Shown here one piece after another: positions 6,938 through 30,368 of a stretch of DNA of 64,000 bases. Source of the stretch: Flavobacteriia bacterium (GTDB taxonomy: Bacteria; Bacteroidota; Bacteroidia; Flavobacteriales; Weeksellaceae); NCBI GenBank assembly GCA_015999765.1, contig JAECQR010000004.1, positions 1-64,000 on the forward strand, in the 5' to 3' direction. Made by a program: the position numbers and the translations under genes. The notes beneath the pieces were generated by a model that was not told the DNA's origin, searched no databases, and saw only the letters and a list, made by a program, of their open reading frames with translations. Positions within the stretch are counted from its first letter, which is position 1; each line of letters begins with the position of its first letter.

Positions 6938-6967
6938 AAATAATCCTGCGATTCCGCAGGATTATTT
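6938..6967. terminator. Bidirectional terminator between cysteine synthase and the DNA glycosylase
   Basis: AAATAATCCTGCG-ATTC-CGCAGGATTATTT. Confidence 0.8.
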
Positions 6968-7700: not shown

Positions 7701-7781
7701 AGCAGAATTATTTATCTTATGACCAGCAAAAGTAGGTCTTTTTTAACTTTATTACTGATGCTGAACGGAATCAAATACAGA

Positions 7782-8444
7782 TTATGCAAGCGGAAACCAA
7801 CTCCGGAAGGTATAAATCATCAGGAAAAGCCAAAAGTAACCCAGTGAAAAACCTCCCAGAACATCGCTGGGATAATGAACCCGCAGATAAATCCGGCTGA
7901 ATCCGATAGCCAGGGAAAGGATGATCAGAAAAGTCATAAAAACATATTTCCAGATTTTAGGCAAGTCTGTCAGCCAGATAAAGTAAGCCAGCATTCCGTA
8001 AAATATGAAACTGAAAGTAGCATGGCCACTGGGAAAACTAAAACTTTCTTCGCGGTACAGCAAGGGATACAAAGGTCGGGGTCTGGCGAAAAAAAGTTTC
8101 GTAACGCAGATCAGCATTAAACCTCCGCCGCCCGCTGCCACAGTGAATAAGGCCCGCCGGTAGTACCTGCCGGTAAGCAATACAAACATTAAAAACGGAT
8201 ATGCGATCTTCACAAAAGGGGCAGAAGAAAATTGGGTGATGGTGTACATAATACCCGTGAAGTTCGGCCTTATTATATGTGCTTTGAAAAACTCAAAAAT
8301 CATTAAATCAATCTGTTCTTCCTTTTCAAAAAGCACTTCGTTGGTAATCGCTGCAAAAGTGAATAATGCGAGAAGAAAAAAAAGCAGTGAAAGAAGCAGT
8401 TTTACCGAGTGGTTCCGGTAATAATTTTTTAAAAACTGTACCAT
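7782..8444 (-). CDS. PAP2-superfamily phosphatase
   Basis: KLFFARPRP...SFPSGHATFSF...SRIYLRVHYPSDVLGG. Confidence 0.9.
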   Translation of the reverse strand: MVQFLKNYYRNHSVKLLLSLLFFLLALFTFAAITNEVLFEKEEQIDLMIFEFFKAHIIRPNFTGIMYTITQFSSAPFVKIAYPFLMFVLLTGRYYRRALFTVAAGGGGLMLICVTKLFFARPRPLYPLLYREESFSFPSGHATFSFIFYGMLAYFIWLTDLPKIWKYVFMTFLIILSLAIGFSRIYLRVHYPSDVLGGFSLGYFWLFLMIYTFRSWFPLA

Positions 8445-8496
8445 AAAACGGTAATGAAAATATTAAATATTACAGTAAACGGAAAAGGGAACGCCG

Positions 8497-9519
8497 CTAT
8501 TGGATTCGGTTGAAGGATTGCCGCGTTGCTATAGACTTATTATAGATTTGCTGGCGGATTTTCTGCATCCGTCCTACCGGCTGCAGCGCTTCCGGGTTTT
8601 CGAAAGGATTGAAGGAAAGGTTCTCGTAATCTATACTTCCGTACCGGGAAATATCCTGTTTTGGAATTATAATCTGCCCCACGGTAATGAATTCCGAGTG
8701 TCTTTCTCTCCACTGTTTCAGCAGGTTATTCACTGGCGTTTTCTTTTCATCGGTGGCCAACTGAACCTGGAAGTCCAGCGTAAGATCATTCTTTAGAAAC
8801 CAGGCTCTTAATGCATCTGCCTGATTAATATCTGCATCAGGTTTAAATTTTTCATTATCCGAAGGCTTCAGGCGGATTTTTACAATGCGGTCCTCGAGCC
8901 GGAAACATCCGACAGAATGATAGGCATAGCCGCTGATCAGATGTTTCTCAATATCCAAAACTTTTAAAGTGTTGTTCAGGATGGGCAGAATTTCTCTGTC
9001 GAAGAAGAGACTCAGCGCGGATTTCAGCAATCCTGGAATCTTCAGTAATGAAAGGGAAAAAGGAGTTCCTCTTGATATGAAAAACCGATTGGCTTTAATA
9101 TGAAGTTTTAAAAATTTGGAAACCGAATTGGTGATAAATACGGGAAGATTCACCAAAGGAAACTTTGCACTTACCGGTATGTTCTTATTGTAAATTTTTA
9201 CTGCGCAGCCGTAGAGCGGATATTCGCCGCCGCCTTTTGTAACAAAGAAATTAGGATGCGAATACCGGATGATGACCCCCAAATTATCGCCCTTCAAAAT
9301 TTTTGAAAAATCTGCAGCCTTATTATTAACAGGAATGAAATTTCCGCGGACAAATCCAAAAGCTTTGGCGTGGGCATTACGGGTTGAAATATGTTTTTTA
9401 TTGAGTTTATGGGAAACCGAGACGGCTTTTTCGATGAGCGCTACATCCTCATTCAGGAGCTCTTCTTCTTCGGCGGTGAGGTGATCATATTTGGGCGAAT
9501 AGGTAAGGAACTTCTTCAT
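8497..9519 (-). CDS. Catalase-like heme protein
   Basis: HISTRNAHAKAFGFVRGNF and YSHPNFFVTKGGGEYPLYGCAVKIYN resemble the small catalase-related family; adjacent to bphO. Confidence 0.6.
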   Translation of the reverse strand: MKKFLTYSPKYDHLTAEEEELLNEDVALIEKAVSVSHKLNKKHISTRNAHAKAFGFVRGNFIPVNNKAADFSKILKGDNLGVIIRYSHPNFFVTKGGGEYPLYGCAVKIYNKNIPVSAKFPLVNLPVFITNSVSKFLKLHIKANRFFISRGTPFSLSLLKIPGLLKSALSLFFDREILPILNNTLKVLDIEKHLISGYAYHSVGCFRLEDRIVKIRLKPSDNEKFKPDADINQADALRAWFLKNDLTLDFQVQLATDEKKTPVNNLLKQWRERHSEFITVGQIIIPKQDISRYGSIDYENLSFNPFENPEALQPVGRMQKIRQQIYNKSIATRQSFNRIQ

Positions 9520-9561
9520 AAAATTTCTTTATCAAGAGTCATCAAATATGAAACCAAGAAA

Positions 9562-10116
9562 TTAGAGCGAAAGATCCAAAAGAAAATGATACGCTTTTTG
9601 CGCGCCGGAAATACAGTCGTCCTCGAATTCCTGAGTAATCTGCCTGTCCATTACCTCTTTAAAGTTTTTCCAGTACGACCCTGTTTTATCACCATAACAC
9701 CTGAAGTAATTAAAAGGAACTTCATAAAAATCAGGATTCTTCGAAAGCTGTTTGGCAATCATATTTCCGCCTAAAGTAGAACCTTCCATTACATAAAGAA
9801 TACCGAACGCTTCGGCTTCATTTTTAACCTCCGGTAGAATTGGAACCGCAGATTTTTCGAGATTCAAAAATTCCAGATCCTTTTCGATTAAAGACAACTT
9901 TCGTCTGTTCTCCAGATTGAGTTCTTCTGCATTCGGCTTAGATATGGCGGAAAATATTGCATTTTCAAAATTCTTCAGAAAAAGATAATTGTAAAGAATA
10001 AGATTTCTGTAAGCATTCAGCGAAAAAGTGCCGTCGAAAATCCTTTTAGAGTTGAACTGGGCTTCGACACGGTCGTGCAGAATTTTGGTGTCTGCTTTTA
10101 AAATTTCAGAAATCAT
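9562..10116 (-). CDS. bphO: Biliverdin-producing heme oxygenase
   Basis: KILHDRVEAQF proximal-His region, LYVMEGSTLGGNMI; 8 bp from the phytochrome gene. Confidence 0.85.
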   Translation of the reverse strand: MISEILKADTKILHDRVEAQFNSKRIFDGTFSLNAYRNLILYNYLFLKNFENAIFSAISKPNAEELNLENRRKLSLIEKDLEFLNLEKSAVPILPEVKNEAEAFGILYVMEGSTLGGNMIAKQLSKNPDFYEVPFNYFRCYGDKTGSYWKNFKEVMDRQITQEFEDDCISGAQKAYHFLLDLSL

Positions 10117-10124
10117 TCCTGGTT

Positions 10125-12314
10125 TTATGGTCTTTTAAAGGTCAGAATAAAGGTCGTTCCTTCATTTTCTTTGCTTTCGTAAGTGATATTTCCTTCCAAA
10201 CGGTTCATGATGCGGTAGACGATGGAAAGACCTACCCCGTTTCCCTGGAACGATTTGGCATTCTCCATCCGGTTGAAGATCTTAAACATCTTTTCCTGTT
10301 CAGATTCGGGAATCCCGATGCCGTTATCTTTGACTTTATAAATCACATGGTTCCCGTTTACTTCCCCGCCGATTTCAATCTTTGGATTTTGATGTGTGGA
10401 GGAATATTTTACCGCGTTGCCAATAATGTTCAGGAATACCTGGGTAAGCATGGTTTCGTCCCCCATTACATTAGGCAGGTCGCCTACGATAATTTCGGCG
10501 TTTTCGTTAAGGGTGAGCTTCATATCGCACGAGACTTTATTGATAATAGCGGCGGTAGATAACTCCTGAACAGTGATGTCGGAAGACTTAGCACGGCTTA
10601 GGCTCAGTACGCCACGCATCATGTTTTCCATACCAAGGATTTCCTTTAAAATACTTGATACCCTTTTCCTCACGTCCGGATGATCGTGATGGGATTTTTC
10701 CAGAAGCTGGGCATTGAGTTTCATGACCGTCAAAGGAGTTCCCAGATCATGTGAAATGGAGTAGGAAAAGCTGTCGAGCTCTTCATTAAGATTTTTCAGT
10801 TCCTCGTTCAGTTCCTGCACTCTGCGGAATTGAGAGTATGTGGTTTCCAGAATGGTTGCTACCACTCTTTTCGCCGCAAAAATGTCTTTATTTTGCCAGG
10901 GTTGTGCTTTTCCTTTGATATCTTCTATATAAGTTTCAAAAGATTTTCTTGGCGAAATCATCATCTGTTCCTTTCCGTTAACAATCCGGGCTTCGGTTTT
11001 CTTAGAAGGATTTCCGGCCCACAGCACCTGCCCGTCGATTTCTTTGCGGAACCAGATCAGGAGTTCATTCCGTTTATCATCAGTAAATCCAAACATTACT
11101 CCTGCCGCATTTTCTATAATTCCTAAATTTCCCTGCAGCGAATGGCTGAAATCATTGGTTGCGTAAAAATTCTTCAATGGATTCTCCCTCGCATACTGCA
11201 CGATTTGAAGAATATTTTCGTCCGAAGGCACCTCGCCGGAAGTCGCAATATTACGGCCGACAATAATGGCCAAACCATCAGCAGCAGGATATTTCTGCAT
11301 TTCTGCCACATTGCTGAACAGAGAATCCTCCAGATTGTCATAAGCCATGAGTTTGGCCTTCAGCGCTATAATTTTCCGGTCGAGTTCGATACTGTCAGTA
11401 AGCGTTTGTCTTGATTTATAGGAGGTATAGGCGTTGGCTGCAATTACAGTAAAGACCTCTGCACGCATCCGGTTTACCAGATCGATGTGTTTCGCCTTAA
11501 TATTCTGGCAGGTTACCATTCCCCACAGTTTATTATCGATGACAATCGAAGTGCTGAAACTTGATGAAACTCCTGTGTTTTTTAAGTATTGCCCGTGTAT
11601 AGGCGACATTCCTCTTACGGAAGAATACGTTAAATCCACCGCCTCCTCTGTACTGCTGATGATGGGAATTGGTTCAGAATACACATCACTGAAAATCCGT
11701 TTACGTTTTTTGAGATAGAGCTCCCGGGCCTGCCTTGGGATATCACTTTCAGGATAATGGAGGTTCAGGAAACTCTCGACTTTGTTTTTCACCTGTTCGG
11801 CAATTACCTTTCCGCTCCCGTCTTCCAAAAAACGGTAGAGCATTACCCGGTCATAATCTACCGCGTCGGACACTGAGGAAAGCAGTTCGTTCCATATCTC
11901 TTCTGAATCGGTAGCGTTGTGGATGCTTTCGTATTTTTTGGAAACAAAACTTCTCTGGTGAAAATGTTCAATGACTTCCTCAAATTCAAGAAAAACGTCT
12001 GCACCATATTTGTAAATGGTAAAATGGTAAAACTTTCGCTTGATTTCGATCCTGTCCAGATAAACATCGGTATCTTTTAAAGTATTCAGATCAAGATTTG
12101 TGAGCACAACCGAAGCCAGCAAAGGCTTGAAAACCTCAGGCTCCTGGCCAAAGCTTTTACCAAAAAAGCTTTTATCCATAGGGAAAATCTCGAAAATATT
12201 CTGTGAGAAAAATTTAATCGTCTTCGATTCAGCATCCAACCCGATAAGGTATCCGAAATCCTGGATATGACCCGAAACATGTATCTTTTCCTCGTGGCAG
12301 TCCACAAAATTCAT
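10125..12314 (-). CDS. bphP: Bacteriophytochrome sensor histidine kinase (PAS-GAF-PHY-HisKA-HATPase)
   Basis: VDCHEEKIHVSGHIQDFGYL (chromophore Cys), DIPRQARELYLKKRKRIFSDV, SPIHGQYLKNTGV, PRKSFETYIE tongue motif, SYSISHDLGTPL H-box. Confidence 0.92.
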   Translation of the reverse strand: MNFVDCHEEKIHVSGHIQDFGYLIGLDAESKTIKFFSQNIFEIFPMDKSFFGKSFGQEPEVFKPLLASVVLTNLDLNTLKDTDVYLDRIEIKRKFYHFTIYKYGADVFLEFEEVIEHFHQRSFVSKKYESIHNATDSEEIWNELLSSVSDAVDYDRVMLYRFLEDGSGKVIAEQVKNKVESFLNLHYPESDIPRQARELYLKKRKRIFSDVYSEPIPIISSTEEAVDLTYSSVRGMSPIHGQYLKNTGVSSSFSTSIVIDNKLWGMVTCQNIKAKHIDLVNRMRAEVFTVIAANAYTSYKSRQTLTDSIELDRKIIALKAKLMAYDNLEDSLFSNVAEMQKYPAADGLAIIVGRNIATSGEVPSDENILQIVQYARENPLKNFYATNDFSHSLQGNLGIIENAAGVMFGFTDDKRNELLIWFRKEIDGQVLWAGNPSKKTEARIVNGKEQMMISPRKSFETYIEDIKGKAQPWQNKDIFAAKRVVATILETTYSQFRRVQELNEELKNLNEELDSFSYSISHDLGTPLTVMKLNAQLLEKSHHDHPDVRKRVSSILKEILGMENMMRGVLSLSRAKSSDITVQELSTAAIINKVSCDMKLTLNENAEIIVGDLPNVMGDETMLTQVFLNIIGNAVKYSSTHQNPKIEIGGEVNGNHVIYKVKDNGIGIPESEQEKMFKIFNRMENAKSFQGNGVGLSIVYRIMNRLEGNITYESKENEGTTFILTFKRP

Positions 12315-16681: not shown

Positions 16682-19600
16682 TTACCAATAAATGGGATTT
16701 ATAAACCTTCGAAGACGTTCATATTCAGCATATTCAAGTGAGTTATCAATTTTTTGTTTAACATAATTCTTAATTGGAATTAAGTGAAGTTGAGACTTAC
16801 CCTTATTTAAAATCTCAAATATACTACGCCACTCGTTTGCTCGAATATTTCCTACGATGATATTTCCAGAGTACGACCCTCCAATTCCATTCCATGATAT
16901 TGATGAAAAATCTTCAATGTCTATATTATTTTCAAGAAACAAAAACAAGAACGTTTCAAATTGATCTGAAAAGTATTTTCTAACCAGCCGTATAATACAA
17001 TTCACAGAACTGATATTTTTTGGCCATTTTACAATCATATTTTTTAAGAATTGTAAGGCTAATTCTTTTTTAGTTCCAGATAAGTCTTGGAAAAACATAT
17101 CAAACTCATCGTCACCAATTCCAATTTGTACTGAATTAGCAATAATATCAAAGAATAATTTTTCCATATCATTCTCGTCAAGGAAATTCCAGATAAAATT
17201 TAGATTCTCCATATTTACGTTCATCAGCCTCTCGTTAAAATAAAATAGAGTAACAAATTCAAAAATGAAATTTTTATTAAAACTTAAAATTAATTTCAAC
17301 CCTTTTCTTTCATAGTCAAAATCTGTCCGCTGTTTTGATGAACCTTCTTGCATATATAGTTTCTCCACCAAATCTCTATCTGTCTCTAGCTGAGTTATAC
17401 AATGTTCAAAAAAATCATCGTCTATATAAATATCAATACCCTGAAGTTTTTTATCGTAAATAATCTTAAGAAAATCCGAGAAAATGGTTTGTGAATATGG
17501 ACCGAACTTATGAAGCCAACTAAAATTAAAATATTCTGGAGAATCTAAATATTTGGTCGTATTGTAAAATTCTTTAGTATAATAATCATTAACAGATTCA
17601 TCATTCAATTGTTCAAAAAAAGACAACCTAAACCGATTTGAATTCTTATGCTGCAAACGTTTTAAAAATTTCCACAGAACCAAACCATAATCTGAATCAT
17701 TAGCAATTAGTGAAAATACATTGTAAGGCACTGATGTATTTGTGCAAGATTTATTACGGATAAAATACTTTAACATTTCAAATCCTAAAACCTTATTCCT
17801 TTTAAATGTGTTTTCTATTATAATACAAAGGGAGTTAAAATTACTATGATTATGAGGTGACACGAGTAAGGTATTTTTGATCAGTTTACCAAACCTTCCA
17901 AATTCAGACTTATCTTTGAAAACAAAATGCGTAGTAATTTCTTTTATTTTTAATTTTCTATATTCATTATGATCAATCTTTCGATTTTTAGTTCGAAATC
18001 TCCTTGTCCACTCTACTTTTGAATAATCAACAAACTCATCATTTATAAAACGATTATATAAATGTTGATACTTTATATTTCTTGGTTTAATAAATCTTAA
18101 TGAATCCAGAAATTGTTGCACGAAATATACATCTTCGAATTTCTTTGGTTTCAATTTTTCTTCTATAAATCCCAGAATTAAAGGAAGATCTAAAGCCAAC
18201 GTTTTTTTATTTACCTCAGTATAATGCGGTTTCCAATCATTAATAATTTTTAAGACTCTCTGTGGAAATTTTGCAAACAGTTCAAACAAATAATTCCATA
18301 CTTCTATCTTCATACATTTAACCTTTTCGTTTAACGGAACCATATAGTTGTAATGAATGAATGCATTATTTTTCCGTGAAGTTTTAAAAACTCTGTTCGT
18401 ATGCTTTAAAAAAAGTGTTGCTAATCCTAAAAACGCTTCCTGGTAATGTGGAAGTTCTTCTTTTGATTTAGCAATAAGTAATTTCGATAATTCCCTTTGT
18501 TTTTCAAAATTATTATTGAATTCATCGTCGTCCTCAAAACTTGTATTTTCTTTCAGTCTTCTTATCAGTTCAGGAAATACACTTGGGCTTTTTCTGGTAT
18601 ATTCAAAGGAAAGTTCAACTGCTGCATTAAAGCTATCTTCAGCGTAAGATCTGAAGAAAGGTGTAAGTAGCGCCAATAGTTTATCATCAGCAAACACAAA
18701 ATCATTTGTGTCATAGATAGCATTATATACCGGGTTCTCAGATTCTTCTATTTGACTTACTTTTTTATAAATGCATGCTAAAGTTTCTTCACGCTTATAA
18801 AACCAAAACAACTTAATAAATCTTACAATCCTCTCATTATCATTTTGAAAGGTAAAAAAATATTGGTTAAGGTCATCTTTAATACGATCAAATACTTCTG
18901 TATAACCGAAGGTATTGTTTGAAATTATAACAGTATCTGCAAATCGATGACTGAAATCATCAAGATATCCAAACAATAATTTGTTGAATGATAACTTCTT
19001 GTCTTTTATAAAAATCTTATAAAAGAAATAGGTTGACATAACCTGCTCTGAAATTCTCACATTGTCGCCACTAATCTCGATAAGCTCACGCTTTGAAAGC
19101 TCATCCAGAGATTCTTGAAACTCATAATAGTTTAAATCGAAATTTTTCAGAAGTTGTTCTAAGAACAATTTATCATCTCTTCTAAGTGTAAAGAAAAAAG
19201 AGACTATTCCTATCGTCTTTAGCATTGCAGTGTTATCAAACATGCTAAAATCTTTTAAAAATGTTCTGAAGTAAATATCATAAAGTTGATACACCCCTCC
19301 TTTTAAAAATTCATAATGTTTTTCCCTAGCCAATTTTGCTGCCATAACAGCTAAACGGCTATTGCCGTCTGCAAGAGCTATGATTTTATTTTGATATCTG
19401 GAATGCTTTACTTGAAAGTAATCATTACTGATGATACTTTTGATTTCATCGTCTGAGAACTTAGAAAGCTCTATTATCCTAGGCTCGAAATTATCATAAA
19501 TTGTGTAAATATCAGGGAGAGCATGGTTTCTGACGGTTATAACTAATTTAATATTACCTTTTCTCTTTTCTCTAAATACATTCATTATTTGCGAGAAATT

Positions 19601-20431
19601 GAGCAATTGTCTATTAGCATCATCAATTAAAAGGATGTAATTTTTTTTGGAATTTAAATGAATTATAAGGTCTTCCCAGATATCAATATCTTTTTTAACA
19701 ATAGCATATGATCTATAATCAGGATTTTCACTTAAAAACTGATTAATTACTTCGAGTCCAAATTTTGTTTTACCAACTCCCGCAGGCCCAGATAGCACCA
19801 CAAGATCTTTTGATTCAAGAGAAATTCTTACTTGCTCTAACTCTGTCACTCTTCCTAAAAATGGATTATCCAAAGGAGTGGAAAGATTACCTGCTTTATT
19901 ATTATATTCCTCTATAAAATTATTAATAGGTAAAATTTGGCCAGTCTCAAACGGGATACCTAAAATCTCTTTTGCTATAATATGATGTTCAGTAAAAATA
20001 TCTAAGGCAAGCTTATCAAGTCCAATAAGTTCGATATCAATATTGTGCGTTCTACTAAATTCAATAACGCTTTCTTCCTGATCCACCTTTAGTTTACAAT
20101 TAAAAAATAAAATAATTTTATTTATTTTTTCATTATTAATTTTTACCACCTTAGAATCCAGACAGACTAAAATATCATCTTTTAATTTCTTAACAATTCC
20201 CTTATTGGCAACAGTGGTAAATTCAACGAAATACAAATGCCCCGATTCACTTCTAAAAAAAGTATCCGGAGTTCCTTTCACCGTTTTCTTTTTACCAACT
20301 TGACTCCCTGTTCTATTAATGCTTTGAACTTGATTATCTCTTAAATTCAAATAAACATCACATAGGTTTTGAAATTCAGCATCATTGATACTTACCAATT
20401 TTTGTTCTATTATCTGTAATCTACCACTCAT
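16682..20431 (-). CDS. STAND-type P-loop NTPase with N-terminal PD-(D/E)XK-like domain and long C-terminal helical region; putative antiphage protein
   Basis: VKGTPDTFFRSESGHLYFVEFTT (REase-like), Walker A LSGPAGVGKTKFG, Walker B YILLIDDANR. Track start 20449 (GTG) lies in a TATATTTG -7 box; ATG 20431 preferred. Confidence 0.78.
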   Translation of the reverse strand: MSGRLQIIEQKLVSINDAEFQNLCDVYLNLRDNQVQSINRTGSQVGKKKTVKGTPDTFFRSESGHLYFVEFTTVANKGIVKKLKDDILVCLDSKVVKINNEKINKIILFFNCKLKVDQEESVIEFSRTHNIDIELIGLDKLALDIFTEHHIIAKEILGIPFETGQILPINNFIEEYNNKAGNLSTPLDNPFLGRVTELEQVRISLESKDLVVLSGPAGVGKTKFGLEVINQFLSENPDYRSYAIVKKDIDIWEDLIIHLNSKKNYILLIDDANRQLLNFSQIMNVFREKRKGNIKLVITVRNHALPDIYTIYDNFEPRIIELSKFSDDEIKSIISNDYFQVKHSRYQNKIIALADGNSRLAVMAAKLAREKHYEFLKGGVYQLYDIYFRTFLKDFSMFDNTAMLKTIGIVSFFFTLRRDDKLFLEQLLKNFDLNYYEFQESLDELSKRELIEISGDNVRISEQVMSTYFFYKIFIKDKKLSFNKLLFGYLDDFSHRFADTVIISNNTFGYTEVFDRIKDDLNQYFFTFQNDNERIVRFIKLFWFYKREETLACIYKKVSQIEESENPVYNAIYDTNDFVFADDKLLALLTPFFRSYAEDSFNAAVELSFEYTRKSPSVFPELIRRLKENTSFEDDDEFNNNFEKQRELSKLLIAKSKEELPHYQEAFLGLATLFLKHTNRVFKTSRKNNAFIHYNYMVPLNEKVKCMKIEVWNYLFELFAKFPQRVLKIINDWKPHYTEVNKKTLALDLPLILGFIEEKLKPKKFEDVYFVQQFLDSLRFIKPRNIKYQHLYNRFINDEFVDYSKVEWTRRFRTKNRKIDHNEYRKLKIKEITTHFVFKDKSEFGRFGKLIKNTLLVSPHNHSNFNSLCIIIENTFKRNKVLGFEMLKYFIRNKSCTNTSVPYNVFSLIANDSDYGLVLWKFLKRLQHKNSNRFRLSFFEQLNDESVNDYYTKEFYNTTKYLDSPEYFNFSWLHKFGPYSQTIFSDFLKIIYDKKLQGIDIYIDDDFFEHCITQLETDRDLVEKLYMQEGSSKQRTDFDYERKGLKLILSFNKNFIFEFVTLFYFNERLMNVNMENLNFIWNFLDENDMEKLFFDIIANSVQIGIGDDEFDMFFQDLSGTKKELALQFLKNMIVKWPKNISSVNCIIRLVRKYFSDQFETFLFLFLENNIDIEDFSSISWNGIGGSYSGNIIVGNIRANEWRSIFEILNKGKSQLHLIPIKNYVKQKIDNSLEYAEYERLRRFINPIYW

Positions 20432-20448
20432 TTGCACAATATTTACCA

Positions 20449-20541
20449 CAAATATAACGAATTAACGTTAAATAATAACACTAAATGTAAAATATTTTAC
20501 ATTTATAATATTTTATATTACAATAAACATTACATTTGTAA
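20449..20541. promoter_or_regulatory. Symmetric divergent promoter with a central 24-bp perfect palindrome
   Basis: Minus -7 box TATATTTG (20456-20449), plus -7 box TACATTTG (20531-20538), palindrome TAAATGTAAAATATTTTACATTTA (20482-20505), IR TTACAA-N12-TTGTAA (20518-20541). Confidence 0.8.
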
Positions 20542-20556
20542 CACTAAAACTAAAAA

Positions 20557-21645
20557 ATGTACACAGAGATTTTAAGAATAATAGAAGGAGGATTAAACAG
20601 GGATATTAAAAAAATAACAAATTATTCGAAGATTCTTGCTGAAAAATTAGAAAAAGATGGAGATGGAAAATTGGCAAAATTAATTATTAATACACTGGAT
20701 AATAAGCCTTCTTCAATGGTATCAATGGATTCTTTGCTTTCGAGTCCGGTCGATCAGGAAAGCCGTATGAGTATTGTTGATATTTCAATGCCAATTAAAA
20801 ACGATGGAGAGGTAATTCTTCCACCAGGCATCGCTAATAAAGTTGAAGATTATGTTAACTTATATCGTCATCAAAATGAGCTTATAAAGAATGGTCTTGA
20901 AATTTCGAATTCTCTATTACTATATGGAATTCCAGGAGGTGGAAAAACGACGATTGCTAAATATATTTCATATAAAACAGGACTTCCTTTAATCACGGCT
21001 CGTTTTGATGCTATTGTATCATCTCTTTTGGGTAATACCTCAAAAAATATCCGTAAAATTTTTGAATATGCGGATGAAAAACCATGTATCCTTTTCTTAG
21101 ATGAGTTTGATGCCATAGCTAAGGCGAGAGACGATCAATACGAATTAGGAGAACTTAAAAGGGTTATAAACAGCTTACTTCAGAACATTGATAATTTTTC
21201 AAAATCCAATCTACTTATTGCCGCTACAAATCATTCGGAACTTTTAGATAAAGCAATTTGGAGAAGATTTAATACAATCATTGAGGTTGGACTTCCGAAT
21301 CAAAATGAAATACAGGGGCTTATAGAAAAGTTCATTCAAGGATCGGCAAACGATTTTTTGAACGACGAAAAAAAACTGGGTAGGATTCTTCAAAACTTGG
21401 AAGGGAAGACACCGTCGTTTATCAAAACTTTATTCAATAATATTCTTGCTCAAAAAATCATTAGAAACAAAGAAATGCTTTCGTACGAAGATGTTCTTGT
21501 AGAAATTTTCGAAACTAATAACAAAGATTATAAGCCTGAAGACCTTATCATATTTTTAAATGAAAGTGGTATAACTCAGGAGCGCATAACACAAATAATG
21601 AACATATCGATCAGACAAGTCAGAAATAATTTAAAAACAAAATAG
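20557..21645 (+). CDS. ietA: AAA+ ATPase of an IetAS-type system
   Basis: LLLYGIPGGGKTTIAKYIS (Walker A), CILFLDEFDAIA (Walker B), IAATNHSELLDKAIWRRF (sensor/Arg finger); followed 9 bp later by a subtilisin gene. Confidence 0.8.
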   Translation: MYTEILRIIEGGLNRDIKKITNYSKILAEKLEKDGDGKLAKLIINTLDNKPSSMVSMDSLLSSPVDQESRMSIVDISMPIKNDGEVILPPGIANKVEDYVNLYRHQNELIKNGLEISNSLLLYGIPGGGKTTIAKYISYKTGLPLITARFDAIVSSLLGNTSKNIRKIFEYADEKPCILFLDEFDAIAKARDDQYELGELKRVINSLLQNIDNFSKSNLLIAATNHSELLDKAIWRRFNTIIEVGLPNQNEIQGLIEKFIQGSANDFLNDEKKLGRILQNLEGKTPSFIKTLFNNILAQKIIRNKEMLSYEDVLVEIFETNNKDYKPEDLIIFLNESGITQERITQIMNISIRQVRNNLKTK

Positions 21646-21654
21646 ACATAAATC

Positions 21655-24021
21655 ATGGAAAGGAATTTACCAATAAAATTTTTTCAAAAACGAATTAATG
21701 ACGAAAGAAACACTGAAGGCGGTGGAAACCAAGATCCACCAAAATGGTTTGATGAAACTGTCGTTCCCGGCAAGGCACAGCAATTTATTGATACGCTAAG
21801 TGATGTTTCTCAGAAAATATCAGCGAAACAACGCAATGACAATTACATTCCTAATGTTATCAAGTTAAAAGTTAATCAAGATGCATTAGCAAAAACTTAC
21901 CGTAAAGAAATTCGTCAGATTTTTAATACTCAAAAAATGAATGTGATTGGCTTGAGTCAAAATGACGAAGTTTTAGTAAAAATTGAGAGTGCAGAAGAAG
22001 TAAATAAAATCACAAAAAAACTAGCACAAGGTTTAAAACAATCAGCAAAGCAAGGAGTAAAATTAGGTATTGCTGCTATTGATGATGTTGAAGAGCATTA
22101 TCCAGAAATCAGTATTGATATTGAGACATTTGAAGAAGCTGAAGAGCTTAAAGTAAAATTATTCAACTATGGTGATCCGGAACTAAACACAATAGCCATA
22201 AGAGCTTTTGAAAAATTCTGTATAGATAGAGATATTGATTATAGCAGAACATTATATTCTGCAGATTTAAATATTTTCAAAATCAGCCACGCAACGCTTG
22301 ATACTGTTGAGGAGTTAAAAGATTTTGACGGTGTTCAACTTATTTCGGAAATGCCAAGATATTATGTTACTTTGGACGAGTTAGATGGCGACGGCCAGAT
22401 AAATATTAAAATGCCAGAAGCAGGAAAGGAATATCCTACTATAGGAATTCTTGATAGTGGTATTGCAAAAATACCCCATTTATCTCCGTGGCTACTGGAG
22501 GATAATTTCACAAAATATCATGAAGATGACGTTGATAAAGGTCACGGAACCGCTGTATCGGGAGTTCTGCTATATGGTGATGAGCTAGAGGAAGAAAATT
22601 ATACTGGTTTTCAAGGTGCAAAGCTTTTTGAAGCCATTGTATTTCCAAACAATACTACTCAAGGAGTTTCAGAAGAAGAATTGATAGAAAATATACGTGA
22701 AGCAATTAGCGAAAATGACCACATTAACATATGGAATTTATCATTAGGAACTAACAAAGAGGCCGACGAAATTGAATTTTCAGACTTTGGAAAAGCTTTG
22801 GATGAAATTCAGGAACAGCACAATGTTTTGATTTGCAAATCAGCTGGTAATTGCGGAAATTTTCAAAAAAATAGTCCAAGAAGCAGAATATCACAATCTG
22901 CAGATACAATCAGAGGTCTGGTTGTGGGATCTATTGCAAAAAGTAAAAACTCAACAGATTTATCAGAAAAAAATCATTCATCACCTTTTTCCAGAATTGG
23001 ACCTGGTCCATCTTTTTTAATAAAACCTGAAATTTCGCATTTCGGAGGCAACGTAGGACTAGATCAAAATAATAAATTAATACTGAATCCTGTTTACACT
23101 TTTTCAAAAACTGGTGACAGAAAAGGTGTTGTGGGAACAAGTTTTTCAACTCCAAGGATTTCTTCAATTGTCTCAGGTCTTGATCATTTGTTAAATGAAG
23201 GTTTTAACCCTCTTCTATTAAAAGCTTTAACAATTCACTCTGCCAAGTATCCTGTAGAATTAAAAATTGCTATTGATGAGAAGTTAAAACATGTTGGGTT
23301 TGGTGTACCCTCTAATATTCAGGATATACTTTTCAACCAGCCAAATGAAATTACTTTAATACTTCAGGATAATTTAGAAAAAGGTAATTTTATAGAAATT
23401 CTTGATTTCCCGTATCCTCAGTCGATGGTTGACGAAGATGGTTATTTTCACGGAGAAATTTGTGTAACCCTCGTAACCTCTCCAATTCTTGATTCGGCAA
23501 ATGGTGCAGAATATTGCCAGTCAAATATTGAAGTTTTGCTGGGAACATATGATGAAAAGACTGACAGAGACACATCAAAACGTGGAATTATAAATCCTAT
23601 AGGCAAAGATGGCGCAAAGAATCTTTTATCTCATAGCCTCTATAGTAAATCGGCAATCAAGAATACTGAAAGCCCGTACACCAAAGAACGAGTTTTGGTA
23701 GCTTATGGAGATAAATTCCAGCCTGTAAAAAAATGGTCGGTTAATTTGGACGAATTTACAGCATCAAATAAAGAAAAATTTCTGAAAAACCCTAAAAATT
23801 GGTATCTTAAAGTGGAAGGTCTTTTTAGAGATTTTATCGAAACAAAAGCCGATATGCAGAGAATAACTCCAAGCCAAGAATTCTGTCTTATTATCACAAT
23901 AAAAGATACAAGAAATGAAAGTCACATCTACAATGAAGTTACACAACTATTGGATAGCTACAACTTCGTTCATCAGAATGTTCGATTAAAAGAAAACGTA
24001 AGAGTTCAGCTTAGAAGTTAG
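21655..24021 (+). CDS. ietS: Subtilisin-like S8 serine protease of an IetAS-type system
   Basis: Catalytic Asp PTIGILDSGIA, His KGHGTAVSGVL, Ser GTSFSTPRISS; oxyanion region KSAGNCGNF. Confidence 0.83.
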   Translation: MERNLPIKFFQKRINDERNTEGGGNQDPPKWFDETVVPGKAQQFIDTLSDVSQKISAKQRNDNYIPNVIKLKVNQDALAKTYRKEIRQIFNTQKMNVIGLSQNDEVLVKIESAEEVNKITKKLAQGLKQSAKQGVKLGIAAIDDVEEHYPEISIDIETFEEAEELKVKLFNYGDPELNTIAIRAFEKFCIDRDIDYSRTLYSADLNIFKISHATLDTVEELKDFDGVQLISEMPRYYVTLDELDGDGQINIKMPEAGKEYPTIGILDSGIAKIPHLSPWLLEDNFTKYHEDDVDKGHGTAVSGVLLYGDELEEENYTGFQGAKLFEAIVFPNNTTQGVSEEELIENIREAISENDHINIWNLSLGTNKEADEIEFSDFGKALDEIQEQHNVLICKSAGNCGNFQKNSPRSRISQSADTIRGLVVGSIAKSKNSTDLSEKNHSSPFSRIGPGPSFLIKPEISHFGGNVGLDQNNKLILNPVYTFSKTGDRKGVVGTSFSTPRISSIVSGLDHLLNEGFNPLLLKALTIHSAKYPVELKIAIDEKLKHVGFGVPSNIQDILFNQPNEITLILQDNLEKGNFIEILDFPYPQSMVDEDGYFHGEICVTLVTSPILDSANGAEYCQSNIEVLLGTYDEKTDRDTSKRGIINPIGKDGAKNLLSHSLYSKSAIKNTESPYTKERVLVAYGDKFQPVKKWSVNLDEFTASNKEKFLKNPKNWYLKVEGLFRDFIETKADMQRITPSQEFCLIITIKDTRNESHIYNEVTQLLDSYNFVHQNVRLKENVRVQLRS

Positions 24022-24199: not shown

Positions 24200-25210
24200 A
24201 TGAAAATAAATTTAGAAAAGATTTCAATTGAAGTTGAAGATAAAAAACTAGATATTAAAATCAATGATGGTATTGAATTACCCAAAAGTTTATATAAATA
24301 TTATTCATTATCCTACAGAGCTGTAGAGTCACTCGAAAACCATACTGTACACTTTGGTCATGCCTTTTCGATGAATGACTTAATGGATGGTAACTTTCTT
24401 TTGTGGGATTTTAATCGGTTTTTAGATACATTTATGTACGAAATGCAAATTCCTCAAATAGCAAGAGTTGATCTGCATGCTGACCTTATAAAAAAATTAT
24501 CGGATGAGTTTCTTAAATATCTTGGATATTTTTGTCTTTGCGAAAACTATATGAATGACTTATTGTGGTCACACTATACTGCTGAGCGGGGATACTGCCT
24601 GGAATTTGACAGAGAAAAACTACTTGACAATTTTAAAGAACATCAAAATTACTTCTTTCCTATAAATTACAGCGATCTTAAAAAAATCGACTTTCAAGAA
24701 TATAGTGATAGAATAGTTGTAGGAAATAAAGTTAGCGTTGGAGCCAACATACCGTTATTCTACAGTTTAGCTAATAAAGAGAAATTTTGGAGTTACGAAA
24801 GAGAATGGAGATTAGTTATTAGAGATGAAAGATTTTCAGCTATTGTAAATCCGCAGGTAATAATTTCAGATGAAGAAAAGAAAATTCAAAACCAAAACTT
24901 ACACTCAAGAAATCTTAAAATCGAACTAGATTCAATAAACAAAGTTATATTGGCTACGCTCTTTTTCAATAATGATAGATTCAATAATATTGAAAAAATT
25001 GACAATACTTCATTTCGATTACAGTTTACAGAGAATAAAGAAAAAATAGATCTACAAAAATTTTTAACCATTCTTAAGAATGAGTTTCCGGATAAAATAT
25101 TTCAGGTCGAAAAAGTTGTTGGCGATAAAATTTCTAGAGAAATTAAATATAAATTAGATATATTGGACGTTAGCAATGAATTCGTCGACATCAGGTATAA
25201 TAATTGTTAA
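24200..25210 (+). CDS. DUF2971-family protein
   Basis: LPKSLYKYYSLSYRAVESLENHTVHFGHAFSMNDLMDG, LLWSHYTAERGYCLEFDREKL, WSYEREWRLV. Confidence 0.72.
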   Translation: MKINLEKISIEVEDKKLDIKINDGIELPKSLYKYYSLSYRAVESLENHTVHFGHAFSMNDLMDGNFLLWDFNRFLDTFMYEMQIPQIARVDLHADLIKKLSDEFLKYLGYFCLCENYMNDLLWSHYTAERGYCLEFDREKLLDNFKEHQNYFFPINYSDLKKIDFQEYSDRIVVGNKVSVGANIPLFYSLANKEKFWSYEREWRLVIRDERFSAIVNPQVIISDEEKKIQNQNLHSRNLKIELDSINKVILATLFFNNDRFNNIEKIDNTSFRLQFTENKEKIDLQKFLTILKNEFPDKIFQVEKVVGDKISREIKYKLDILDVSNEFVDIRYNNC

Positions 25211-25276: not shown

Positions 25277-28200
25277 TTAATTTAAGAGCAGATCACAAAA
25301 ATCGTAGAATTTTATAAATAGCTTTTTCGCATTCTCCTTATCTCCCATTTCAATGTAAATTAGAATCATCTTGTAAAAACCTCCATACCCAGATTTTTGA
25401 ATAAGATATTGCAGCATTTGCTGGCTTGTTTCTCTCTTTAGCATACAGTATGCTGATCCCAGATGGAGATAGTCCGAATTGTATGAATATCCCATTCCGC
25501 TGAGCATTATTCCATACTTTTCAAGGGTTTCAATGAAAAGCTTAATTTCTCCAGTTATTGCAAATGTCTTATCAATTAACTTCTTCCAAATCTCTTTATC
25601 TTTAATTTCGATTTTATACTTAAGAGAATCATTAAACTTCTCATATACATCTTTAATATCTGCTAAAGATTCTGCCTGATCAATCAAAAGAGAAAATTGG
25701 TCTTCTGATATTACTATATAATTGCTACTCTGTTTAGGAATAATATTTTCTACTTCGTTAAGTTTACAGAATTCATTATAGTATGCGTAGTACTCTTCAT
25801 ATACCAATCTATCATAATCAAAATTTCCAGAAACCTTCTCCACCGCTTCAAAAGCATGCTTGAAAGCCAATTTCTTTATTTTGGAATCATAAAAATCACT
25901 TTTTAGAACTTCCATTTCTATACTGAAGAGAAGAAAATAGTGAGATCTGGGTAATTCACCTTTATAATCGAACATTAAGCTAAAGGAGTTAACTTTCTCC
26001 CGAACCAGATGGTAGGCAATTGAATTTTGACGAATATCATTAATTAAAATTTCAGTGGTTCCAATATTTTTCACACTCCAATCCAAATCTTTCTCTTTAA
26101 AGTCATTTAGATATTCGTAAGCCAACTCTGTATCGTAAAAAGATAATGACCTAAGAAAAGTTGATACCCCATAATTTGTATGATCCTTATCGGTAACACT
26201 ATACAGTTTAATGTTCATATTATATAACTTTTTTGAAAGGTTGATAACTTCCCTTTTGGAAAACCATCTCTTCTTTAAAATTTCCCCAAACGTATCGTTC
26301 AGAAATTCTGATACGACAATATCTTTTCTCCAACCATGTCTGACGACACTATTACTAAAACCTTCCTGTAGGTAATGAATTACCTTTTTAGAATCTATTC
26401 TTGAAAATATTCCGCTTAATAAGAAGCATCTGTCAACAAATTTCGAATAATCCTGTTTCCATTCTAGTAATTCAGCCTCATGCTTTTCAATATCCGATTC
26501 TGAAAAAACATTAGAGAGAAAATGGCTGTCAATTTGATTAATCTGATCAAAAAACAATATGGTATCAAGGTCGTATTTTAAAACTTTACTAAGATGAATA
26601 AAATCTGTATATAAGGTGTTGGCATAATAAAAGATAAAAGCCCATAGTTTAGAAATTACTACCGTACTACTCTCATAAGCTTCAATTGTATTAACGAATT
26701 TATTCCTGTATGCAACCAAATATCTTGAAAAACTGTGCTTTTCTCTTAGTAAGTTGATATACTGTAAGAATAATTCAGAACATTTAATGATATCTTTACA
26801 TACAATACTATCCAAATTTATACTTTGTAAAAAAATTTCTTCGCCGACTATTACATAACATAACTGGAAAGATTTAATAAATTTTGAGAAATAAAACCTA
26901 TTAACTCTTGTTTTAATAACTGCTAAGGCTGCAATACAACCTTTCGCTTGGTTTTCAGTTACATTTAAAGCTAATACTTTCTTAAAAAAATATACCGATA
27001 AGTTATTTATAACAGGTTTGATCTTATAATTCTTGACTCCGTTAATAATTTCATTTCTAAGTTCCATATTAGAAAATACAATTGGTAGAAACTCATTTTC
27101 TGAAAGCAAGTTTAATAGAGAGACAAATTCAGCTGTATTTAAGGTATTGATTAATCCAAGCAGATCATTAATTTTATGTTTCAATCCGACCTTGAAAAAT
27201 GCCCTCAAGAAATGTTCGTAAGGACTTATTTCCTGAAGCATTGTTGTTTCCTCTTTGCTTTGCTGGTCACAAAATTTTCTATATTTTTTGATAAAGAAAT
27301 CAGCATAATCTATTTCCTGCTCAATACAGATTTTGAAAAAAATGTTTCCTTCAGCCTCCTTGAAATTCCATTCCATCTTGGAATCATTTGCAATTTCTTT
27401 AGCAAATGGTATTTTACCATTTTCGTAGAACTTTAATGCATTAGAGTAATCACGAACAATATATGACCTCAAATTGAGAACATCATCGTTGATTAACATT
27501 TCAAAAACAGGCTGTGTCTGTATAACCAGATTATCAATAAAGGTTTCTGAATCAGAAACATACCATGTATCGCCATTAGATTGATAAAACTGAATACTCT
27601 TTACCAATATCAGCCCCGCAATATTATCTTTTTCCTTATACTTACTTTCCAGATATTTTAAGAAAACATCATCAAAAAAATCAGAATTTATAATAAATCT
27701 GTCCTTTCGCAATATTTTAATGTCTTTCTCAAATCTTTTTTTTAGACCTCTTGCAAAAAAATACTCCTGATATCGTCTATGATGGTAAATGTAACTAGGA
27801 GAAGTAGCATAGCTGTTAGCACCAACATCAAAGAAAGCATTAATATTAAAATTTAATATTTCGTTTAAACTCTTATAGCAACTTCTCTTAAATCTTTTCT
27901 TTACAACTTTTGTTAGTTCGGTGTGTTTAAATCTATATTGGTATTTTCTTGAAAATTTGTACGACAGATCTTCGTTTAACCTCATGATTTGTTTGTCTTT
28001 GGGATTTAGGAGATCAAGTTGCTCGATATTACTTTTGTGATTGACGTCTTTGAGCTGCGACATCACTTTAAGTTGTAAAAGATCTATAACACTCGATGAT
28101 TTGTCTAAACTTTCAATGGTTTCCCATAATAATCTAATCATAAAGATGTCGTTGATTTCTTCTAATAATTTCAGGTTGGATTTCTTTAATGACTGCAATT

Positions 28201-29248
28201 TTTTTTCCTTATCCTTATTACGCTTTATAATGAAGTACTTTTCTATATGTTCTAAGGTTAGATTATCAATTTCGTAATGTTTCAACTGAGAAATAAACTC
28301 CGAAACCTTTATTTTGTTCAAGCTACCCTTTCTGCAGGATATTAAAATATTTTTTGTGTTGCTCTGCCCCGCCAATATCTTTATGTACTGAAGGACATTT
28401 TCAGCTTTTGACTCATTTAATTCATCCAGTCCATCAAAAATATAAATAAAACTTAGGGCTTTTCTGTGCACTTTATAATCATTTTGACGGTGACGGATAA
28501 TATTTTCTAGAGAATCATCATAACAATCTTTTAAATTAATAAGCATAGGAAGATTTTTATTCTTCCTAAATCGAGATAATGATCCTCCAAGTTCAGCCTG
28601 ATCGTAAAATATTTTTTTTACAAGAAGACTTTTTCCTCCTCCAGGACTACCGGTTAACAATGAAACTTTTTCAGTAATAGTTAAGGTGCCAATAACATTA
28701 TCTGACTTTATTGGTAAATCAAGTAATTCCGAGGACTGTATAAGACTAGAGGCTTCGATGTCCATATTATCTTTTATAAAACCATATTCGTCTCCTAAAC
28801 CAAAAAACCGTTGTGCCAGATCAAGATTGGAAGGCTTACTTAGAGCTATTTCAAACTGACTAATAGTAAACCAATCAATTTCAATATTATTTTTAGCTGC
28901 TAGATTCTCTATATCTTTTGCTTTTTTCGAAGAAATTTTAATATCAATATTCAGATAAATTGTGATTCTATCTAGTTCATTTGGATATGTTTCTATAGCT
29001 TTAACTATAGATTTTTCTATCTGTTTGTAATTGTTATCATTTTCCAAAAATTTAGACTGAAATCCCACGTTAATATTCTCAATACGACTTAGTTTTGGAT
29101 ACGTCTCTAAGCCAACTTGGTTAAAATCCGCACGTACACCATCCAAAAATTCGTGACTTCTGCAGAACAAATGATAACATAATTCTTCGAATGACTTTGT
29201 TGTATTCTCATTTTTTACTTTAAATGCATTCCAGTTAATTTTAAACAT
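25277..29248 (-). CDS. NACHT-domain NTPase with N-terminal restriction-endonuclease-like domain; putative antiphage STAND
   Basis: N-term SFEELCYHLFCR...INVGFQSKFLENDNNYKQIEKSIVKAIE; NACHT LLTGSPGGGKSLLVKK and FIYIFDGLDELNESKAE. Confidence 0.82.
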   Translation of the reverse strand: MFKINWNAFKVKNENTTKSFEELCYHLFCRSHEFLDGVRADFNQVGLETYPKLSRIENINVGFQSKFLENDNNYKQIEKSIVKAIETYPNELDRITIYLNIDIKISSKKAKDIENLAAKNNIEIDWFTISQFEIALSKPSNLDLAQRFFGLGDEYGFIKDNMDIEASSLIQSSELLDLPIKSDNVIGTLTITEKVSLLTGSPGGGKSLLVKKIFYDQAELGGSLSRFRKNKNLPMLINLKDCYDDSLENIIRHRQNDYKVHRKALSFIYIFDGLDELNESKAENVLQYIKILAGQSNTKNILISCRKGSLNKIKVSEFISQLKHYEIDNLTLEHIEKYFIIKRNKDKEKKLQSLKKSNLKLLEEINDIFMIRLLWETIESLDKSSSVIDLLQLKVMSQLKDVNHKSNIEQLDLLNPKDKQIMRLNEDLSYKFSRKYQYRFKHTELTKVVKKRFKRSCYKSLNEILNFNINAFFDVGANSYATSPSYIYHHRRYQEYFFARGLKKRFEKDIKILRKDRFIINSDFFDDVFLKYLESKYKEKDNIAGLILVKSIQFYQSNGDTWYVSDSETFIDNLVIQTQPVFEMLINDDVLNLRSYIVRDYSNALKFYENGKIPFAKEIANDSKMEWNFKEAEGNIFFKICIEQEIDYADFFIKKYRKFCDQQSKEETTMLQEISPYEHFLRAFFKVGLKHKINDLLGLINTLNTAEFVSLLNLLSENEFLPIVFSNMELRNEIINGVKNYKIKPVINNLSVYFFKKVLALNVTENQAKGCIAALAVIKTRVNRFYFSKFIKSFQLCYVIVGEEIFLQSINLDSIVCKDIIKCSELFLQYINLLREKHSFSRYLVAYRNKFVNTIEAYESSTVVISKLWAFIFYYANTLYTDFIHLSKVLKYDLDTILFFDQINQIDSHFLSNVFSESDIEKHEAELLEWKQDYSKFVDRCFLLSGIFSRIDSKKVIHYLQEGFSNSVVRHGWRKDIVVSEFLNDTFGEILKKRWFSKREVINLSKKLYNMNIKLYSVTDKDHTNYGVSTFLRSLSFYDTELAYEYLNDFKEKDLDWSVKNIGTTEILINDIRQNSIAYHLVREKVNSFSLMFDYKGELPRSHYFLLFSIEMEVLKSDFYDSKIKKLAFKHAFEAVEKVSGNFDYDRLVYEEYYAYYNEFCKLNEVENIIPKQSSNYIVISEDQFSLLIDQAESLADIKDVYEKFNDSLKYKIEIKDKEIWKKLIDKTFAITGEIKLFIETLEKYGIMLSGMGYSYNSDYLHLGSAYCMLKRETSQQMLQYLIQKSGYGGFYKMILIYIEMGDKENAKKLFIKFYDFCDLLLN

Positions 29249-29444: not shown

Positions 29445-30368
29445 CTATTCTGTAATTTTCTTGAAAAGATCTTCAAATGTTGAACTATCTAAAACATAAG
29501 AGGAAATCATAGTTAATACGAATAGAAATAATTCCTCTACTATCTTTTGGTCAACATCAATACTGTTTCGACCATGAGCTATTGTATTTCTATCGCGAGT
29601 ATAGTCATCAAACAAATGAATTATACAGCTATAAATTTGATGTTTAGCTAAATTCTGAAATTTTGAAGTTAACAATTCATTCAGTTTATCTTTCAACCTA
29701 CCTTCTACATCCCCTTTACCAAGCTCATAGTTAATAAAACTCTCTAATGCAGAAAATAGAAGAAAATATGAAAGTTTGTAACTCTTTTCTTTTAACAAAA
29801 GATAGCTTTCCGCCAACAATGAATTGTAAAAAGGCTTTTCATCAATATATAATGGAACTGCATTTACATCTATCATTGAGTAAACAGCAAAATCATTTTG
29901 ATTTATTTCATAGCCACTACCATAAAAACTTCCGTCATAGTATACATTACCTTCTAAGTTATCAACTGCCCTAATCCGAAAATTATTTATTCGGAAATTG
30001 TCGGTATCGGTTCCAAAACCAAAAACTTGAAATGCATCACTATCTTCTTCCCAAATATTTAATAAAAACTCACATTCGTTCCCTAAATAAAAAGGAATAT
30101 TGTACTCATCACTTAACTGCTCAAAATTATCATAATGAAAAATATGATTTTCATTTACATTAACATTAACGACAAAACTAAATTTATTTTTAAAACTCCA
30201 TGCATTGTAAAAATAATAATTTGTCTCTCGTTCTTTCATATACTCGGATATTTCGTAATCCGGCTCATGATCGATTTTAATTATAATTTTCTTTGTAGTT
30301 AAAATTCCAAACTGAGTCAGAATGGTATCAATTACATTCTCTTTTTTTGAAAACTGGTTATAGTTCAT
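29445..30368 (-). CDS. HEPN-domain protein (putative RNase) with novel N-terminal domain
   Basis: C-terminal helical domain LSYFLLFSALESFINYELG...DYTRDRNTIAHGRN with Rx4H motif (RNTIAH). Confidence 0.65.
   Translation of the reverse strand: MNYNQFSKKENVIDTILTQFGILTTKKIIIKIDHEPDYEISEYMKERETNYYFYNAWSFKNKFSFVVNVNVNENHIFHYDNFEQLSDEYNIPFYLGNECEFLLNIWEEDSDAFQVFGFGTDTDNFRINNFRIRAVDNLEGNVYYDGSFYGSGYEINQNDFAVYSMIDVNAVPLYIDEKPFYNSLLAESYLLLKEKSYKLSYFLLFSALESFINYELGKGDVEGRLKDKLNELLTSKFQNLAKHQIYSCIIHLFDDYTRDRNTIAHGRNSIDVDQKIVEELFLFVLTMISSYVLDSSTFEDLFKKITE

What the first reader, a model, noticed from the sequence alone, without database searches (positions are those of the whole stretch)
20431..20560. 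Symmetric divergon: 24-bp perfect palindrome exactly midway between two opposed defence-gene promoters
TAAATGTAAAATATTTTACATTTA (20482-20505) is a perfect 24-bp palindrome centred at 20493.5. The minus -7 box for the STAND gene (TATATTTG, 20456-20449) and the plus -7 box for ietA (TACATTTG, 20531-20538) are equidistant from that centre. Dyad symmetry partly extends to the -7 boxes: 10 of 12 positions match between 20448-20459 and 20528-20539. A second IR, TTACAA-N12-TTGTAA (20518-20541), covers the ietA -7 box. This suggests one dimeric regulator controls both arms, so the STAND NTPase and IetAS may form one co-regulated system. IetA ends in an HTH-like stretch (ESGITQERITQIMNISIRQVRNNLK) and could be that regulator.
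Basis: partly seen in the sequence, partly recalled or inferred. Interest (0 to 1): 0.85.

Follow-up and report, generated by a model that had tools for sequence, protein, structure and literature searches.

The report
Promoter-phased repeat array controlling IetAS defence genes
The striking 24-bp palindrome is mostly a by-product; the conserved feature is a row of short DNA sites spaced exactly two helical turns (21 bp) apart and locked to the ietA promoter, found at ietA genes in several bacterial phyla and most likely bound by the IetA protein, which gives a testable handle on how this phage-defence/toxin-antitoxin system is switched.

Summary
The palindrome, both -7 boxes, their symmetry and the second inverted repeat are all present as stated. 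The interpretation needs replacing. In the three other STAND::ietA head-to-head loci the layout is kept, with -7 boxes 75, 75 and 74 bp apart, but the 24-bp palindrome is not perfect in any of them.

What is kept is a tandem direct-repeat array. Five TWAC sites have their C at 20458, 20479, 20500, 20521 and 20542, exactly 21 bp apart (0 of 20,000 shuffles). All five C's are conserved in all four loci (one 20-bp step in one locus), and two ietAS loci without STAND carry four or five in the same positions. In 61 non-redundant Bacteroidota ietA promoters, NNAC(G/A) cores sit 10/31/52/73/94 bp upstream and 11 bp downstream of the -7 box start; 38/61 have at least 3 phased copies versus 0.4% with the lattice shifted. 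Firmicutes and some proteobacterial ietA genes have 21-bp arrays with other motifs.

Best explanation: IetA binds the array through its C-terminal helix-turn-helix and autoregulates ietAS. In this clade the STAND promoter sits on copy 1 and is probably under the same control. No binding or expression data exist.

The parts
16682..20431 (-). STAND NTPase gene (nSTAND3-type, 1249 aa)
   Evidence: Pfam nSTAND3 36.3 bits, cut-off 27.2; ATG at 20431
20449..20456 (-). STAND -7 box TATATTTG; overlaps array copy 1
   Evidence: Conserved in all four head-to-head loci at 75/75/75/74 bp from the ietA box
20455..20459 (+). Array copy 1 TAACG (C at 20458, 73 bp before the ietA -7 box)
   Evidence: C kept in 4/4 head-to-head loci and in solo G046
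20476..20480 (+). Array copy 2 TAACA (C at 20479, 52 bp before the box)
   Evidence: C kept in 4/4 head-to-head loci and solo G177, G046
20497..20501 (+). Array copy 3 TTACA (C at 20500, 31 bp before the box); right arm of the palindrome
   Evidence: C kept in 4/4 head-to-head loci and solo G177, G046
20518..20522 (+). Array copy 4 TTACA (C at 20521, 10 bp before the box)
   Evidence: C kept in 4/4 head-to-head loci and solo G177, G046
20539..20543 (+). Array copy 5 TAACA (C at 20542, 11 bp after the box start)
   Evidence: C kept in 4/4 head-to-head loci (20-bp step in G194) and solo G177, G046
20482..20505 (.). 24-bp palindrome: array copy 3 plus a reverse-oriented copy (G at 20487, 31 bp from the STAND -7 box)
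   Evidence: Perfect only in the window; 16-bp core TGTAA-N6-TTACA also in G160; broken in G075 and G194
20518..20541 (.). Inverted repeat TTACAA-N12-TTGTAA; explained by array copies 4 and 5 plus the TTTG of the -7 box
   Evidence: Sequence; lattice
20531..20538 (+). ietA -7 box TACATTTG, reference point of the array
   Evidence: Box found in 61 of 68 Bacteroidota ietA upstream regions; array phased to it
20557..21645 (+). ietA, AAA ATPase
   Evidence: PADLOC IetA 450 bits; Pfam AAA 108 bits
21535..21636 (+). Codons 327-360 of ietA: predicted C-terminal HTH, recognition helix 352-360
   Evidence: AlphaFold2 model, pLDDT about 90 in this region; relatives' C-termini pass Pfam HTH cut-offs, the window's own does not
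21655..24021 (+). ietS, subtilisin-like protease
   Evidence: PADLOC IetS 1089 bits; Pfam Peptidase_S8 115 bits

Best explanation
The intergenic region carries a tandem operator array: five direct repeats with a WWATTAC(G/A)-type core, spaced 21 bp (two helical turns) and held in fixed register with the ietA -7 box. It is a conserved cis-element of ietA, not of the STAND gene. The protein that most likely binds it is IetA, the AAA ATPase (the antitoxin in described IetAS-type modules), through its C-terminal HTH, with head-to-tail subunits on one face of the DNA, one per two turns. Because the copies 10 bp before and 11 bp after the box start, and here also copy 1 on the STAND -7 box, lie inside the core promoters, binding should repress ietAS and, in this clade, the divergent STAND gene; loss or engagement of IetA, for example during phage infection, would derepress both. 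Shown: the array, its phasing and conservation, and a predicted HTH fold. Inferred: IetA binding, repression, induction.
For: Five TWAC sites at exact 21-bp spacing; 0 of 20,000 dinucleotide shuffles reach five. All five C's kept in four head-to-head loci while the palindrome is not, and four or five kept in two solo ietAS loci. Autocorrelation peaks only at 21/42/63 bp in 76 non-redundant ietA upstream regions; 21 is the best lag in 47/76 versus 6/233 control upstream regions from the same loci. In 61 Bacteroidota promoters the cores fall in 2 of 21 phases relative to the -7 box (175 of about 265 counts), controls flat; at least 3 phased copies in 38/61 versus 0.4% with the lattice shifted. 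In the own genome no other five-site chain exists, and the phased pattern with a -7 box matches only here plus one site on another contig that was not examined. IetA has a predicted C-terminal HTH. Period 21 ranks first in 36/68 loci with HTH-bearing IetA versus 1/12 without (Mann-Whitney p = 0.0003). Other lineages keep the 21-bp period with other motifs. IetA-type proteins are antitoxins of IetS-type proteases in SGI1 and pTiC58 (PMC5006074).
Against: No binding or expression data. The HTH-array association is confounded with phylum and GC content; motif similarity tracks HTH similarity but not beyond general IetA relatedness (partial Mantel about 0). Several proteobacterial and phage IetA proteins have an HTH but no detectable 21-bp array (L118, L123, L124, L126), and one HTH-less locus (L115) scores for period 21. 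The window's own C-terminus is below Pfam HTH cut-offs. The SGI1 study suggests its sgiAT promoter needs positive activation, so activation rather than repression is possible. STAND control is inferred from geometry only.
Confidence: 0.62

Rival explanations
1. One reading: the 24-bp palindrome is the operator of one dimeric regulator placed midway between the two promoters and controlling both.
For: Palindrome is real, unique in the genome and symmetric about the two -7 boxes. Its 16-bp core TGTAA-N6-TTACA is kept in G160.
Against: Not perfect in any homologous locus; broken in G075 (94% STAND identity) and lost in G194 although layout and spacing are kept. Its right arm is a copy of an array that exists without STAND.
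Confidence: 0.07
2. The array is real but is bound by a separate, host- or island-encoded regulator rather than by IetA.
For: No direct evidence links IetA to the DNA; partial Mantel test is null; some HTH-bearing IetA genes lack the array.
Against: The array occurs once in the own genome and accompanies ietA across phyla and in solo ietAS loci with different neighbours, so a regulator outside ietAS would have to travel with it. Of the two ietAS proteins only IetA shows an HTH in these tests; IetS was not specifically examined for one.
Confidence: 0.2
3. The array is an activator site: IetA or another protein binds at 21-bp steps upstream of RNA polymerase and is needed for ietAS expression.
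For: Most copies lie upstream of the -7 box in helical register. The sgiAT study suggested its promoter requires positive activation.
Against: Copies inside the spacer and near the expected transcription start are more typical of repression (general knowledge).
Confidence: 0.15
4. The 21-bp periodicity is a by-product of AT-rich or intrinsically curved DNA with no specific binder.
For: The intergenic region is 83% AT.
Against: No peak at 10-11 bp, as curvature phasing would give; a specific AC(G/A) core carries the signal (the AC itself was required when units were collected, the G/A was not); control promoters are flat.
Confidence: 0.02

Closest known systems
IetAS / IteAS (AAA ATPase plus subtilisin-like protease: toxin-antitoxin pair of pTiC58, sgiAT of SGI1, anti-phage system)
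   Same: Same two genes in the same order; PADLOC IetA and IetS profiles match strongly.
   Different: No paper found here describes a promoter array for it; below NCBI's IteA/IteS equivalog cut-offs, which the E. coli prophage IteA passes. Here a STAND gene is added head-to-head.
Autoregulated type II toxin-antitoxin operons
   Same: Antitoxin gene first, toxin second; antitoxin carries a DNA-binding domain and a putative operator overlaps the promoter.
   Different: Operator is a tandem direct-repeat array at two helical turns, phased to the -7 box, and the candidate binder is a AAA ATPase rather than a small dimeric antitoxin.
Plasmid iterons (tandem direct repeats about two helical turns apart, bound by Rep proteins)
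   Same: Direct repeats with about 21-bp period.
   Different: Here the repeats are locked to a promoter box of a defence operon on a chromosome; no replication role is indicated. Origin or Rep genes were not searched for.
Divergent promoters sharing one operator region (divergon)
   Same: Two opposed promoters with a shared control region and conserved geometry.
   Different: The conserved sites are direct repeats oriented with ietA; the palindrome is not conserved.

Membership tests
IetAS / IteAS system | AAA ATPase gene matching IetA profiles | tested here: met
   PADLOC IetA 450 bits. NCBIfam IteA equivalog 360 bits against a cut-off of 510, so not an equivalog of the E. coli protein
IetAS / IteAS system | Adjacent S8 subtilisin-like protease gene | tested here: met
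   PADLOC IetS 1089 bits, 9-bp gap; NCBIfam IteS 391 bits against a cut-off of 900
IetAS / IteAS system | Toxicity of IetS neutralised by IetA, or phage protection | not testable with these tools
   Needs experiments; reported for SGI1 sgiAT in PMC5006074
Autoregulated toxin-antitoxin operon | Antitoxin has a DNA-binding domain | tested here: met
   Predicted C-terminal HTH in the AlphaFold2 model; relatives pass Pfam HTH cut-offs, the window's own C-terminus does not
Autoregulated toxin-antitoxin operon | Antitoxin binds and represses its own promoter | not testable with these tools
   Only the conserved, promoter-phased sites are shown
Divergon with a palindromic operator | Palindrome conserved between the two promoters in homologous loci | tested here: not met
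   Perfect only in the window
Divergon (any shared control region) | Conserved head-to-head layout and promoter spacing | tested here: met
   Four loci, box-to-box 75/75/75/74 bp
Avs/AVAST STAND defence genes (for the STAND gene) | Match to Avs profiles | tested here: not met
   PADLOC gives only a weak MkoA match; Pfam nSTAND3 is met. The separate gene at 25277-29248 matches Avs4 at its N-terminus only
Plasmid iterons | Replication initiator gene and origin linked to the repeats | not tested
   No search for rep genes or origins was made; genes annotated next to ietA gave no such hit

The most novel reading that the evidence does not exclude
IetA is a DNA-binding AAA ATPase that forms a polar, ATP-controlled assembly on promoter-phased direct repeats; the state of this assembly couples phage sensing to release of the IetS protease and to transcription of ietAS and, in Weeksellaceae, of a recruited STAND NTPase, making a three-gene, array-controlled defence unit.
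Probability: 0.25. Interest if true: 0.82.

Novelty: new variant of a known kind. Interest (0 to 1): 0.62.

Why it matters
In the open papers held here, IetAS-type modules are described as a toxin-antitoxin pair and a phage-defence system, with no account of this kind of control. A promoter-locked operator array, kept in Bacteroidota and with related 21-bp arrays in Firmicutes and an E. coli prophage copy, turns that into a direct experiment. It points to AAA ATPase antitoxins acting as array-binding regulators, shows how a second defence gene may be wired into an existing module by placing its promoter on the module's operator, and offers a sequence signature for finding ietA promoters.

Tried and rejected
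Palindrome as conserved operator: rejected by the homologous loci. Palindrome as a multi-copy regulon site: unique in the genome. STAND and IetAS as one obligatory system: rejected, because STAND relatives sit beside type III restriction-like plus PARIS-like, Shedu plus Gabija-like, or type I restriction genes (PARIS and Gabija named from domain content and memory, not tested with their models), and close ietAS relatives lack STAND. Curvature: rejected.

HTH-motif coevolution beyond phylogeny: not found (partial Mantel about 0). The first 21-bp diagonal score missed sparse arrays such as L202-L204, which I then noticed by eye; a second, window-based score was written afterwards, so the HTH-versus-array comparison is not fully independent of that look. 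The 'no HTH' class was assigned by reading C-termini, not by a model. Some HTH-bearing IetA genes have no 21-bp array; this is unexplained. Literature searches gave no paper on ietA regulation. The pTiC58 and Ri plasmid loci were not fetched because they are virulence plasmids; other rhizobial and Paraburkholderia loci were used.

Full report
WHAT WAS CLAIMED AND WHAT IS THERE. The 24-bp palindrome is the longest in the window, unique in the genome, and rare in shuffles of the local AT-rich DNA (1 in 3,000). The intergenic region lies between an nSTAND3-type NTPase gene (minus, ATG at 20431) and ietA-ietS (plus), assigned by Pfam and PADLOC.

HOMOLOGOUS LOCI. A search of 325 genomes of the same family found the STAND gene in 16 (E <= 1e-30) and ietA in 12 (E <= 1e-60). 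Four genomes have both, and in all four they are head-to-head (Fisher p = 0.0015; genomes of one family are not independent samples). The host is probably Kaistella, because a same-genus genome (G286) carries the ietA promoter sequence of Kaistella sp. SH40-3. In the three other head-to-head loci IetA is 99, 89 and 81% identical to the window and STAND 94, 55 and 50%. The layout is therefore old enough to be informative, and the STAND protein changes faster. The palindrome is perfect only in the window: one substitution in G075, a TGTAA-N6-TTACA core in G160, lost in G194. What stays constant is the spacing between the two -7 boxes (75, 75, 75, 74 bp) and five C residues.

THE ARRAY. Those C residues belong to TWAC sites at 20458, 20479, 20500, 20521 and 20542, exactly 21 bp apart. 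None of 20,000 dinucleotide shuffles gave a five-site chain at 21 bp, and none of 4,000 gave one at any period from 8 to 30. I noticed the TWAC core before testing it, so the motif in that shuffle test was chosen after seeing the sequence; the family-wide tests below do not depend on it. The genome has no other five-site chain; the other four-site matches lie on other contigs and some look like 21-nt repeats. All five C's are conserved in all four head-to-head loci (one copy reads TATC in G160 and one in G194; the last step in G194 is 20 bp). The same positions are occupied in ietAS loci with no STAND gene: five in G046 (Chryseobacterium edaphi) and four in G177 (C. taeanense). The array thus belongs to ietA. 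The left arm is a reverse-oriented copy that sits 31 bp from the STAND -7 box. It is intact only in the window and G160, so a small contribution cannot be excluded.

FAMILY-WIDE TEST. One scan of GTDB genomes with an IetA alignment gave 80 loci. In 76 non-redundant upstream regions a motif-free autocorrelation has its clear peaks at 21, 42 and 63 bp. 21 is the best lag in 47/76, against 6 of 233 upstream regions of other genes in the same loci. In 61 Bacteroidota promoters with a TAnnTTTG box the C of NNAC(G/A) falls at 10, 31, 52, 73 and 94 bp before the box, or one bp less, and at 11 bp after its start. Two of 21 phases hold 175 of about 265 counts; control promoters are flat. Of these promoters, 49/61 have at least two and 38/61 at least three phased copies; with the lattice shifted the figures are 3.9% and 0.4%. 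The unit is WWATTAC(G/A)nTTT with an otherwise AT-rich spacer (units were collected by requiring AC, so the AC columns are fixed by construction). The window fits this lattice exactly.

WHO BINDS IT. IetA ends in a predicted three-helix HTH (327-336, 341-348, 352-360) at high confidence in an AlphaFold2 model built from 46 sequences. The C-termini of relatives L139 and L067 pass Pfam HTH cut-offs; the window's own does not. The rest of IetA resembles FtsH and proteasome-activating ATPases. Sites with the same 21-bp period but other motifs occur upstream of ietA in Bacillus (CGTACA), Bradyrhizobium and Paraburkholderia plasmids (TT(T/G)ACAAT), viral contigs (ACGTTC) and an E. coli prophage IteA that passes the NCBI anti-phage equivalog cut-off. 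After dereplication, period 21 ranks first of 19 periods in 36/68 loci whose IetA has an HTH and in 1/12 whose IetA lacks it (Mann-Whitney p = 0.0003, Fisher p = 0.011 at z > 2.5). Phylum and GC content confound this. Motif similarity follows HTH similarity (Mantel p = 0.002) but not beyond general IetA relatedness. IetA is therefore the most likely binder, not a proven one.

MECHANISM. Copies 4 and 5 flank and overlap the ietA core promoter and copy 1 overlaps the STAND -7 box, so binding should repress both. The antitoxin as its own repressor is standard in type II toxin-antitoxin operons (general knowledge). IetA-type proteins act as antitoxins of IetS-type proteases in pTiC58 and SGI1 (PMC5006074). 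Activation remains possible, because the SGI1 study suggested that the sgiAT promoter needs positive activation. The link between STAND and ietAS is facultative. It is seen head-to-head in four genomes and, with a 30% identical relative, directly downstream of ietS in Flavobacterium salmonis, but close ietAS relatives lack STAND and STAND relatives lie beside unrelated defence genes.

NOVELTY. Papers held here describe IetAS/sgiAT-type modules as toxin-antitoxin or defence genes; none found discusses a promoter array. Subscription papers and preprints were not searchable. I file it as a new variant of a known kind: an autoregulatory operator, but built as promoter-phased direct repeats at two helical turns with a AAA ATPase as the candidate binder.

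Noticed in passing
L101 (Flavobacterium salmonis) 6001-12068: ietA, ietS and a STAND relative (30% identity, cut by the contig end) lie in a row on one strand; in L105, with a near-identical ietA, other genes take that place.
   Followed up: partly
window 16682-24021 versus L022, L023, L024: STAND diverges much faster than IetA and IetS between the same loci (94/55/50% against 99/89/81% for IetA).
   Followed up: no
window 24200-25210, 25277-29248, 29445-30368: A DUF2971 protein (PADLOC PDC-S31), a NACHT protein whose N-terminus alone matches Avs4, and a weak AbiV-like protein extend the defence island.
   Followed up: no
L025, L026/L027, L032: STAND relatives (31-34% identity) sit next to a type III restriction-like gene with AAA plus DUF4276 genes, to Shedu with OLD-like and UvrD-like genes, and to type I restriction genes.
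   Followed up: no
L117 (Bradyrhizobium quebecense plasmid) 1-2592: ietA is divergent from a multiubiquitin, E2 and ThiF-type gene cluster 112 bp away, a possible second case of a gene set sharing the ietA control region.
   Followed up: no
L118, L123, L124, L126: IetA proteins with a C-terminal HTH but no detectable 21-bp array; their operator, if any, is of another kind.
   Followed up: no
window 38212-39510 and 43200-44429: A PIN_8-domain protein and a DUF5906/VapE-like protein lie further along the window, suggesting mobile-element content.
   Followed up: no
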